From positions 1 to 32,522 of the forward strand of contig CAIUUR010000376.1 of the NCBI GenBank assembly GCA_903902345.1: DNA of 32,522 nt. The letters are read 5' to 3'. Positions within the stretch are counted from its first letter, which is position 1. Each line of letters starts with the position of its first letter. This DNA is from an uncultured Geobacteraceae bacterium (GTDB lineage Bacteria; Desulfobacterota; Desulfuromonadia; Geobacterales; CAIOGM01). The notes below the pieces were generated by a model, which saw nothing but the letters and a program-made list of their open reading frames with translations, did no database searches and was not told the DNA's origin. A program made the translations under genes and the position numbers. Below, in pieces: positions 541-32,522 of the stretch.

Positions 541-690
541 TTGGCAAAAAATCATGAGGCGGCGCAGCGAGGACATTTAACTGGCGACGAGAAGCTCCAG
601 CAAATCGTTGCGGAACGAATAGGTATCCGTTTAGATTTTCGCAAACCCGGCAGACCCAAGAAAACTCAAATATTCATTGGTGAAAAATAA
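541..690 (+). pseudogene. Possible C-terminal remnant of a REP-associated (IS200-like) transposase
   Basis: The plus-strand frame from 541 to the TAA at 688-690 reads LAKNHEAAQRGHLTGDEKLQ and later RLDFRKPGRPKK before stopping. A charged tail ending in GRPKK after a GDEKL-like helix resembles the C-terminus of the Y1 transposases that accompany REP repeats. There is an in-frame stop just upstream at 538-540 and no catalytic HUH motif or Tyr region, so at most a 50-codon stump remains. The stop codon lies inside the first copy of a 32-bp tandem repeat (677-740). The identification rests on a short stretch and could be wrong. Confidence 0.35.
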
Positions 691-740
691 ATCTGTCCCG
701 GTTTTCGCTTGGTGAAAAATAAATCTGTCCCGGTTTTCGC
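677..740. repeat. Perfect 32-bp tandem duplication
   Basis: Positions 677-708 and 709-740 are identical 32-bp copies; each starts TTGGTGAAAAATAAATCTGT and ends with CCCGGTTTTCGC. The unit includes the last codons and stop of the possible transposase remnant at 541-690, and the second copy ends 10 bp before the stop of the ATPase/nuclease gene at 750-2293. Similar ATAAATCTGTCCC-type sequences are, as I recall, associated with REP-type transposases; that link is an inference. Confidence 0.9.
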
Positions 741-30402: not shown

Positions 30403-30657
30403 TCACCCATTCAACCAGTTTCTGTTGAGCGTTCCTTTTCCATATTCAGCCCGCTCTGCCCCCTTCTGCTCTTGCTCTACGATCCGCCGCCCGATCTCGA
30501 AGTTGGTCCGCACCTTCAGGGTGTTGACCGTGGAGACAACAGCGTGGCGAGCGGAGTGGATGAGTCCGCGAAGCTCGGTAACCAATGGCGCAAGCTCGTT
30601 ATCCTCTTTCGGAGGAGGCAGCTGATGACGACTTCCGTGTTCGGATTTTTTCTTCAT
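30403..30657 (-). pseudogene. Truncated YhcG/DUF1016 (PDDEXK nuclease-like) N-terminal remnant
   Basis: An 84-codon frame starting at ATG 30657 (AGGACGAG upstream) contains LVTELRGLIHSARHAVVSTV then NTLKVRTNFEIGRRIVEQEQ and AEYGKG, the start of YhcG/DUF1016 proteins. These usually continue for about 340 residues to a PD-(D/E)XK nuclease domain. Here the sequence leaves the family right after AEYGK and stops within ten codons, 37 bp before glnE. YhcG-type genes often accompany restriction-modification loci, as here. It is most likely a deletion remnant. Confidence 0.75.
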
Positions 30658-30696
30658 GTCTCGTCCTGAACAACTATCCCGCATGACATCAAATGG

Positions 30697-30848: not shown

Positions 30849-32522
30849 TCACTTTCCCCCCTCCACCACGGCAATTTCATCATCCGTCAGGCCGTACAGG
30901 ACGTAGACAAGCCGGTTAATTTGGGCTTCAAGAGCGGGGATGTCCCCTTCGACTCCGCTCAGGGTGCGGACCGTCGGCTGAGCGAAGTCGAAGCCGGCCT
31001 TTGAAGCATTTTTCACCCCTACGATTTTCTGAACGAGCTCTTCAATTGCTGCTTTCTGTTCATCGGTGGCGGGTGGGATGGGGAGTTGTGTCATGTATTG
31101 AGAAAAATAACGAACGAATCCACCTCGGATAAACGTAGTGAGGTTACCATAGAACCACCAGATCAGCTGTGAGTTCAACAACCCCACAAGCCATGGCTCA
31201 TCCGAGGGAATAAAGTACGTCGTGTTACTGAGAAATGCTCCCGTGCTATCCCAAAGAAATTTCGGCTCTTGCGCGATATCCGGATAAACGATCTTGGTCG
31301 ATTCGAATCCATGAAAATATGCGATATTATCCTGAATTTCAAACCACTTGTATGGCCCGGGCTTACGACCGTTCTCCTGATTTTCCGAAGATTTCGGCTC
31401 CAATTCAGTCCTGAACTGTTCCAGGTGGCGCTTGATGGCGGGATAGAGCTCGATATCCGTGCCACGCCGGGTGAAAATAAGATACAGACTTGCCCATTCC
31501 GCCCGCCACTTCTTGAGGTCACGCCCTCGAAGCCACGGTTTGATGATCTCTGCGCAGTTAGGATCTTCGGCTATGAGCCGCTGCCGGGTGGCCTCGTCGA
31601 TGACGAAGGCCTCGTTCAGACCGGTCTTGATGCCGTAGTAGAACTTCCCATCGACATACTCCCCCAGTGGTTTTCCGACCTTGCGCAGTTTTGCGATGAG
31701 CTCCAGCACGTCCGAACGTTCCAAGTTCCAACCTTCGGGAGACAGGGAGGCCACCGGCATAGTGAAACCGACAGTGGCGACAGTGTCCGCCAAATTCTTG
31801 AGCTGTTCCGGGTCGGTGAAGGTGGCGACGAGGATCTTTTCCTGCCCGACCTCTCCCCGCTGGGGTGAGGAGTTTATTTTGCGTCCTTTTGCCGGGGGCG
31901 TGTTCTCCACCAGCACGATGGACGGATAGGTGGTTGCCTCGTCGAAGATGGAGAGATCTCCAAAATCGAGAATCAGGAGCGGGGTGGAACGGGTGGTGAG
32001 GAGCTTGCGGGTTTTCCTGCCGTAACCGGCCCGCATGAATTTGTTGGGGGCGATGTAGCAGAGGGAGCCCTTCGGCTTCAGAATCTCCAGGCCGGCCTTG
32101 AAAAAATAGGTGTACAGATCCGCTGTCCCGCAGAAAAAGTCGCCGAACCGCTCGGCATAGATCTCTTTTTGCGCCTTGATGGCTTCATGCCGGATATAGG
32201 GGGGATTACCGATGACCATGTCAAAACCAACAAACCGTCCGTCATCATCCAGAACTTCAGGAAACTCAAAACGCCACTCGAAGGCGTTGGCGTAAACTGT
32301 CCGCTGCCGCTCTTCAATCTTTCGTTCCAGCTCTTCGGCCTTTTGGTGCAGCTCCTGACGCCGAGTCAGTCCGGTATTGTCGAAGACGAAGATTTCCTGG
32401 GCAAGCTCATTAGTAATCCGGCGCAGCTCCCGCATATACCCGTCGGCCGGATCGGAAAAGCTGCTCCATTGCTCCTTGAGCCGTTGGATTTCCCGACGGA
32501 GAACCGCCTTGTTGCTGGGACC
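30849..32522 (-). CDS. Eco57I/type IIG-like restriction-modification methylase, N-terminus outside the window
   Basis: The last 557 residues of a large protein; the frame is open to the window edge (an internal ATG at 32435 is not likely the true start). The methyltransferase catalytic motif IV reads IGNPPYIRHEA, followed by GSLCYIAPNKFMRAGYGRKT and DFGDLSIFDEATTYPSIVLV, all typical of N6-adenine methylases of Eco57I type. The C-terminal part (IIKPWLRGRDLKKW, then IYLIF-like strands and WFYGNLTTFIRGGFVRYFSQ) is a TaqI-like target-recognition domain. Whether an endonuclease domain precedes it is off-window. Two short in-frame insertions (NSSPQRGEVGQ and FDFAQPTVRTLSGVEG) come from palindromic repeats, at about 31850-31871 and 30947-30993. 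Confidence 0.9.
   Translation of the reverse strand, partial: GPSNKAVLRREIQRLKEQWSSFSDPADGYMRELRRITNELAQEIFVFDNTGLTRRQELHQKAEELERKIEERQRTVYANAFEWRFEFPEVLDDDGRFVGFDMVIGNPPYIRHEAIKAQKEIYAERFGDFFCGTADLYTYFFKAGLEILKPKGSLCYIAPNKFMRAGYGRKTRKLLTTRSTPLLILDFGDLSIFDEATTYPSIVLVENTPPAKGRKINSSPQRGEVGQEKILVATFTDPEQLKNLADTVATVGFTMPVASLSPEGWNLERSDVLELIAKLRKVGKPLGEYVDGKFYYGIKTGLNEAFVIDEATRQRLIAEDPNCAEIIKPWLRGRDLKKWRAEWASLYLIFTRRGTDIELYPAIKRHLEQFRTELEPKSSENQENGRKPGPYKWFEIQDNIAYFHGFESTKIVYPDIAQEPKFLWDSTGAFLSNTTYFIPSDEPWLVGLLNSQLIWWFYGNLTTFIRGGFVRYFSQYMTQLPIPPATDEQKAAIEELVQKIVGVKNASKAGFDFAQPTVRTLSGVEGDIPALEAQINRLVYVLYGLTDDEIAVVEGGK
30947..30993. repeat. Palindromic repeat inserted in frame in the restriction-modification gene (CTTCGACTCCGCTCAG type)
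   Basis: CTTCGACTCCGCTCAG (30947-30962) and CTGAGCGAAGTCGAAG (30978-30993) are inverted copies with one mismatch. On the coding strand the element translates to FDFAQPTVRTLSGVEG. It sits between the KNASKAG and DIPALEAQINRLVYVLYGL blocks of the target-recognition domain, with the frame preserved. Confidence 0.8.
31850..31871. repeat. Palindromic repeat inserted in frame in the restriction-modification gene (CCTCTCCCC type)
   Basis: CCTCTCCCC and GGGGTGAGG form a 9-bp stem with one mismatch around a short loop. Translated on the coding strand it gives SSPQRGEVGQ, inserted between NTPPAKGRK and ILVATFTDPEQL. The composition resembles the C-rich hairpin at 30-72. Confidence 0.7.

What the first reader, a model, noticed from the sequence alone, without database searches (positions are those of the whole stretch)
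30947..30993. Palindromic repeat turned into coding sequence in a restriction-modification gene (C-terminal)
A near-perfect palindrome of an intergenic repeat type encodes FDFAQPTVRTLSGVEG within the target-recognition half without breaking the frame. Repeats living in frame in genes are known from Rickettsia palindromic elements; this one may show the same behaviour here and could alter target recognition.
Basis: partly seen in the sequence, partly recalled or inferred. Interest (0 to 1): 0.5.

Follow-up and report, generated by a model that had tools for sequence, protein, structure and literature searches.

The report
Repeat palindromes inside restriction-modification enzyme loops
A 51-letter mobile-looking palindrome sits in frame in a flexible loop of a bacterial DNA restriction-modification enzyme, and relatives of this enzyme carry unrelated palindromes in the same loops, so the loops look like recurrent landing sites for small mobile DNA rather than changes in what the enzyme recognises.

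Summary
A 51-bp palindrome (30945-30995, 17 codons) lies in frame in a TaqI_C/Eco57I-type R-M gene of a Desulfuromonadales-like genome. It is two inverted copies of a repeat unit found 24 times in this genome (these two included) and in 49 of 141 genomes of the order; reversed-pattern controls gave none. It encodes a disordered linker between two C-terminal helices, outside the target-recognition domain. In-frame palindromes are known (Rickettsia RPEs; intragenic REPs, Di Nocera 2013), so this copy is not new in kind.

What is unusual is the host gene. The same linker, another loop and an N-terminal site carry unrelated palindrome families in different homologues (fewest changes on the tree, under my labels: 5 and 16 for the two loops). 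A loop of MmeI-type R-M genes does the same in 9 of 13 alignable genes. In one, the insert is a complete DUF559 nuclease domain bracketed by palindrome halves, in frame; a Pseudanabaena plasmid has the like in an Eco57I-type protein. DUF559 loci have inverted-repeat flanks in 19 of 28, against 2 of 600 random segments. I infer that DUF559 elements spread the C-rich palindromes. The TTCGAC palindrome of the finding has no identified mobiliser.

The parts
30849..32522 (-). R-M gene: Eco57I methylase domain plus TaqI_C specificity domain; C-terminal 557 residues, 5' part beyond the end of the window
   Evidence: full-length matches in the order have open frames of 1109-1447 aa
30945..30995 (-). 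TTCGAC-type REP dimer, 51 bp = 17 codons (GFDFAQPTVRTLSGVEG), in the linker between C-terminal helices 487-506 and 528-542 (loop 2)
30976..30995 (-). left arm GGCTTCGACTTCGCTCAGCC
   Evidence: read
30945..30964 (-). right arm CCCTGAGCGGAGTCGAAGGG
   Evidence: read
31827..31904 (-). loop 1 (residues 207-232) around the gap between strands 200-206 and 229-234, pLDDT below 50 at 214-226; second insertion site of the family
31850..31872 (-). C-rich palindrome CTCCTCACCCCAGCGGGGAGAGG inside loop 1, apparently degraded (loop fold z only -1.6 here, -3.9 in the same-genus copy L035; match to DUF559 flanks only 28.2 bits)

Best explanation
The stretch is a copy of an interspersed, dimeric palindromic repeat (TTCGAC type, REPIN-like). 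It landed in a flexible inter-helix linker of an R-M enzyme and stayed because the element is 51 bp long and the frame used has no stop, so only 17 residues of disordered loop were added. R-M genes of this order have a few such permissive loops, into which unrelated palindrome families have repeatedly been inserted, replaced or nested. Shown: the repeat family, the open frame, the loop position in a predicted model, the absence in most motif-matched homologues, and other palindrome families at the same sites. Inferred: neutral tolerance rather than function, and mobility by an unidentified mobiliser or by recombination.
For: Repeat: 24 exact unit copies in the genome, 49 of 141 genomes of the order, control 0. 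Dimers in 25 of 141 genomes; 54 dimers examined. Linker: 10-13 aa in 21 and 27-51 aa in 6 of 27 motif-matched homologues. Families at that linker: GTAG-type in L035, L036, L123; TTCGAC in L039, L040. Loop 1: 18 of 35 aligned homologues have 26-40 aa, 14 of these 18 with fold z of -3.5 or lower. Fewest changes on a tree of 27 rows: 5 for loop 2, 16 for loop 1, under my labels. Third site in L040 and L042. Inverted-repeat score 45 or more: 9 of 23 genes of this family against 2 of 310 background ORFs, p 3e-10. Both loops are low-confidence segments of the model. I judged 10 of the 54 dimers to lie inside genes; 7 of those 10 have a core length divisible by 3 against 10 of 44 others, p 0.007, rows not independent.
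Against: The family was picked because it contains an insert, and its genes are longer than the background ORFs, so the enrichment is conditioned. The window gene itself scores 41, below the cut of 45, as do L112 (37) and L113 (41). Distant homologues L065-L072 have linkers of 22-26 residues without a palindrome, so a long linker needs no insert. The three TTCGAC copies in loop 2 (window, L039, L040) share flanking residues and may be one old insertion spread by transfer or recombination. The L045 insert was not found repeated. No empty site in a very close relative was found. No RAYT locus examined carries this repeat (0 of 33). 14 of 24 inner tree branches are weak.
Confidence: 0.78

Rival explanations
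1. The loops are not merely tolerant: R-M genes attract or retain palindromes, because an existing palindrome is a target for further ones (nested insertion, gene conversion, template switching), giving allele-like turnover at fixed sites.
For: L036 has a GTAG dimer plus a doubled right arm of the TTCGAC element in one linker. Window, L035 and L036 form one clade (100/100) but differ in the family at the same linker. In nspC a half-arm native to the gene has become a full palindrome in L357, L362, L373, L374 and L375.
Against: Turnover was not observed directly; recombination between alleles would give the same pattern. nspC is not an R-M gene, so the effect need not be special to R-M.
Confidence: 0.4
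2. The hairpins are kept because they act in the mRNA, slowing ribosomes between domains of a long enzyme.
For: Strong RNA folds at the loops (L038 -65.6, L044 -69.4 kcal/mol).
Against: 17 of 35 aligned homologues have a short loop 1 of 9-20 residues. Window loop 1 folds weakly while the frame is kept.
Confidence: 0.08
3. The insert changes target recognition.
For: It lies in the C-terminal half of the enzyme.
Against: It is outside the TaqI_C match (329-482) and unstructured in the model.
Confidence: 0.05
4. Ordinary variable linker, palindromic by chance.
For: Linkers vary in length among distant homologues.
Against: The same 16-nt unit occurs 24 times in the genome and in 49 of 141 genomes, control 0.
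Confidence: 0.02

Closest known systems
Rickettsia palindromic elements (RPE), as described in PMC3733652 (passages read)
   Same: Interspersed palindromes inserted in frame in genes, tolerated as extra residues
   Different: Unrelated host; no CGTC at the element's ends; the same loops of one enzyme family used by unrelated repeats
Intragenic GTAG/CGTC REPs (Di Nocera et al. 2013, PMC3733652, passages read)
   Same: REP monomers and dimers inside ORFs; [quoted passage not shown] recB of two Xanthomonas species hit at about the same site by different REPs
   Different: The words restriction, methylase and methyltransferase do not occur in that main text (supplements not read); this repeat has no GTAG/CGTC end; here one enzyme family has three sites and several repeat families
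REPINs and RAYTs (PMC8049555 seen in a search listing only; otherwise recalled)
   Same: Two REP units in inverted orientation with a short spacer, scattered over the genome
   Different: None of 33 Y1_Tnp loci examined carries this repeat in the fetched flanks
MmeI (PDB 5HR4)
   Same: Homologue of the second R-M family hit by palindromes
   Different: The solved MmeI lacks the insert between KAAHYI and AFVSTNS

Membership tests
REP/REPIN (RAYT-associated) | short palindrome in many dispersed copies | tested here: met
   24 exact units in G000, control 0; 49 of 141 genomes, some matches being nspC codons
REP/REPIN (RAYT-associated) | inverted dimers with short spacer | tested here: met
   25 of 141 genomes; 47 of 54 dimers have core lengths 44-49. 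In G000 itself the exact dimer pattern finds only the window copy; L003 has a variant dimer
REP/REPIN (RAYT-associated) | GTAG (or CGTC) tetranucleotide at one end | tested here: not met
   the 51-bp element begins GGCTTC and ends GAAGGG
REP/REPIN (RAYT-associated) | repeat flanks a RAYT gene | tested here: not met
   0 of 33 Y1_Tnp loci have the unit with up to 2 mismatches in the fetched flanks; more Y1_Tnp matches exist than were fetched
Rickettsia palindromic element | in-frame insertion in genes with the protein kept open | tested here: met
Rickettsia palindromic element | sequence relationship to RPE families | not tested
   no RPE sequence was fetched; a CGTC end is absent
MITE | terminal inverted repeats with target duplication and a cognate transposase | tested here: inconclusive
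   no close empty site was found, so no target duplication could be read
DUF559-flanking C-rich palindromes | repeat matches the flanks of DUF559 genes beyond chance | tested here: not met
   the TTCGAC inserts hit only L240 and L017 flanks, which contain the repeat, and mostly hit random segments about as well

The most novel reading that the evidence does not exclude
DUF559 (Vsr-like) nuclease genes are the mobile core of a widespread element bounded by C-rich inverted palindromes. Its short palindromic derivatives, and sometimes the nuclease itself, are inserted in frame into loops of R-M enzymes, which serve as recurrent safe havens for mobile palindromes of several kinds, including the one in the window.
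Probability: 0.45. Interest if true: 0.82.

Novelty: new variant of a known kind. Interest (0 to 1): 0.6.

Why it matters
Intragenic REPs are usually treated as scattered accidents. Here one enzyme family takes them repeatedly at the same loops, which makes a question testable: are R-M loops only permissive, or targeted? The link to DUF559 gives a candidate mobiliser for C-rich palindromes and a possible role for a domain that Pfam still calls of unknown function. It also warns that such residues in databases can be repeat-derived, not conserved protein sequence.

Tried and rejected
RAYT as mobiliser of the TTCGAC repeat: 33 Y1_Tnp loci, none with the unit nearby. A viral-contig scan for DUF559: 8 pattern matches, none confirmed. 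A 23-nt part of the L045 loop-2 insert, searched with up to 3 mismatches in 3 genomes, was found once, in its own gene. The pattern GTAGGGGCGNNNNNCGTTCGCCC is in 7 of 8 genomes; the exception is G086, whose own R-M gene holds a variant GTAG palindrome in loop 1, so that insert need not be local in origin.

Measures of palindromes in genes. A strict gap-free detector finds 3 of 23 TaqI_C, 2 of 22 MmeI and 4 of 30 nspC genes, and in 800 kb of two genomes 37 hairpins of which 3 lie deep in long open frames. Plain folding energy did not separate the loops from GC-rich coding background. An inverted-repeat alignment score of 45 or more finds TaqI_C 9 of 23, MmeI 4 of 21, nspC 5 of 25 (one of them at a frame's start), background 2 of 310. 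The MmeI count is lower than my reading of the loop (9 of 13). nspC, a non-R-M gene picked for an insert, also scores above background. So I do not claim that R-M genes as a class are proven enriched.

Rows dropped or chosen. MmeI: 30 loci, 14 without the motif, 3 duplicates, leaving 13; L327 and L349 are the genes that led to this family. Dimers: a NuoG-like hit (L268) looks out of frame and was not counted; gene-end or upstream cases (L252, L261, L277) were not counted as inside genes. The 48 same-locus control places were not screened for overlap with the DUF559 flanks. Rfam: no match in the window at gathering scores.

Literature: ten searches of the held library. DUF559 is in 14 papers (titles and abstract starts seen); passages were read of PMC12907096 (no occurrence of palindrom* or inverted repeat) and PMC12308824 (transposase/DUF559 segments as repeated recombination hotspots in Legionella). 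I saw no paper joining DUF559 to palindromic repeats in these searches; 12 of the 14 were not opened.

Full report
WHAT IS THERE. Its nearest named relatives at this gene are Desulfuromonadales and Geobacter MAGs. The minus-strand gene 30849-32522 has an Eco57I methylase domain (E 2.5e-31) and a TaqI_C specificity domain (E 7.4e-16, residues 329-482). Its 5' part lies beyond the window; full-length matches in the order have open frames of 1109-1447 aa. The best solved folds are the CamA and M.BseCI adenine methyltransferases, then BrxX/PglX and MmeI.

THE ELEMENT. It is 51 bp, 30945-30995: arm GGCTTCGACTTCGCTCAGCC, 11-nt spacer, arm CCCTGAGCGGAGTCGAAGGG, read as GFDFAQPTVRTLSGVEG. Four of its six frames are open. 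Two arms in a shuffled window are unlikely: 0 of 100 shuffles reach two. The unit occurs 24 times exactly in the genome, the two arms here included, with none for the reversed pattern, and in 49 of 141 genomes of the order. Some of these matches are nspC genes whose own codons match an arm. Inverted dimers occur in 25 of 141 genomes; in the window's genome the exact dimer pattern finds only this copy, with a variant dimer in L003. Of 54 dimers examined, the commonest core length is 44 (22 of 54), the next 45 (13 of 54). I judged 10 of the 54 to lie inside genes: three TaqI_C R-M genes, two MmeI-type genes, an HsdR-like gene, a CCG-domain gene, a CbiD gene and two nspC-like genes. In 7 of these 10 the core length is divisible by 3, against 10 of 44 others (Fisher p 0.007; rows are not independent). 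In the window's own genome further in-frame copies lie between domains of an ABC exporter (L007) and of a CusB-like protein (L023). The solved exporter nearest to L007 has a shorter linker there.

THE SITE. I compared the linker between ..VQKIL and LEAEIDRLVY in 103 distinct homologues; 27 matched the motif, 21 of them with 10-13 residues. It has 29 residues in L039 and L040, 41 in L035, 51 in L036, 36 in L123 and 27 in L045, and 29 in the window. L039 and L040 carry the same kind of element with other spacers. L035 and L036, the same-genus genes, carry a GTAG-type palindrome followed by the right arm of the TTCGAC element. L123, from another family of the order, carries a GTAG-type palindrome alone. 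The L045 insert was not found repeated. Distant homologues L065-L072 have 22-26 residues without a palindrome, so length alone proves nothing. In the model this linker (509-525) and loop 1 (214-226) fall below pLDDT 50, between better-predicted elements. The linker is outside the target-recognition domain, so I do not support the idea that it alters recognition.

A RECURRENT LANDING SITE. In loop 1, 18 of 35 aligned homologues have 26-40 residues, and 14 of those 18 have folding z of -3.5 or lower against mononucleotide shuffles. Four (window, L037, L046, L050) do not. The other 17 have 9-20 residues. The palindromes belong to different families: GTAG dimers (L039, L040, L042, L054) and several C-rich types. 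On a tree made without the loops the fewest changes are 16 for loop 1 and 5 for loop 2 among 27 rows. My family labels decide these counts, two rows being labelled unclear, and 14 of 24 inner branches are weak. L040 and L042 have a further in-frame 94-bp GTAG element at an N-terminal site, so L040 carries three in-frame palindromes. L114, from a one-contig genome, carries a strong palindrome at loop 1, which argues against an assembly artefact. With one inverted-repeat score, 9 of 23 genes of this family reach 45 against 2 of 310 ORFs sampled from two genomes. The window gene scores 41 and is not among the 9, and one of the 9 (L148) scores at another site. The R-M genes are longer than the background ORFs, which was not corrected for.

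A SECOND R-M FAMILY. MmeI-type genes of the order have a loop between WYRKAAEYM and AFVSTNSI. It has 8 residues in 4 of 13 distinct alignable genes and an insert in 9 of 13: TTCGAC type in three, GTAG type in one, C-rich types in five. Solved MmeI lacks the insert. By the inverted-repeat score only 4 of 21 MmeI genes reach 45, so the two measures disagree in size.

DUF559. In one MmeI gene (L340) the insert is 171 residues and holds a DUF559 domain (E 3.6e-41, profile positions 3-108 of 109). It keeps all 19 positions conserved in at least 85% of 26 aligned DUF559 rows. It is bracketed by the two halves of a C-rich palindrome. A Pseudanabaena plasmid has a DUF559 domain in frame in a 1621-aa Eco57I-type protein, again with inverted flanks. 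Among DUF559 loci, 19 of 28 have an inverted repeat between the two 300-nt flanks at E 1e-3 or better (15 of 24 plasmid loci; 4 of 4 from this order, which were met through repeat or R-M searches). The controls are 2 of 600 random segments and 1 of 48 other places in the same plasmid loci. Annotated neighbours suggest non-disruptive insertion: between sufB and sufC, between transhydrogenase genes, and in hpa and paa gene clusters. Of 33 loop inserts of R-M genes, 15 match DUF559 flanks at 40 bits or more, against 0 in shuffles and 0.7 on average in random segments. Seven of the 15 are TTCGAC arms, which match random segments too. The other eight are C-rich; of these, four match flanks from other phyla (L328, L330, L339, L340), one matches the DUF559 gene beside its own R-M gene (L044), and one (L038) is nearly reached by a random segment. 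The window's own loop 1 matches only weakly, 28.2 bits. I infer, and have not shown, that DUF559 moves these palindromes.

WHAT IS KNOWN. PMC3733652 (passages read) reports REPs inside genes of several species, with inserts of 20-30 residues and recB of two Xanthomonas species hit at about the same site. In-frame palindromes are therefore a known kind outside Rickettsia too. The searches listed under Tried and rejected showed no report of R-M loops as recurrent sites or of DUF559 with palindromic flanks; the library lacks most subscription papers.

VERDICT. The element alone is a new member of a known kind. The repeated use of R-M loops by unrelated palindromes, and the DUF559 link, are the parts worth following.

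Noticed in passing
L340 (G088:C84), L443 (NZ_CP112876.1): DUF559 nuclease domain embedded in frame in MmeI-type and Eco57I-type R-M proteins, bounded by inverted palindromes.
   Followed up: partly
L427-L451, L017, L044, L240, L340: DUF559 loci have inverted-repeat flanks in 19 of 28, and several sit between genes of an operon-like cluster.
   Followed up: partly
L357, L362, L373, L374, L375, L377, L381: nspC: native codons for SLSGVEG match a repeat arm exactly in L377 and L381, and in the other five a full palindrome with extra residues has formed there.
   Followed up: partly
window 30403-30684 (-): Short ORF with a partial DUF1016_N domain (E 8e-10), apparently a truncated gene beside the R-M gene.
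   Followed up: no
window 677-740: Perfect tandem duplication of a 32-nt unit.
   Followed up: no
G000:C327:8-129 (L008): Five copies of the repeat unit in a row at a contig end, the first four spaced 24 nt.
   Followed up: no
L036, L039, L040, L042, L123, L336: GTAG-type elements in these R-M genes are 70, 94 or 97 bp, each one more than a multiple of 3, so each in-frame insertion must have added or lost bases at the junction.
   Followed up: no
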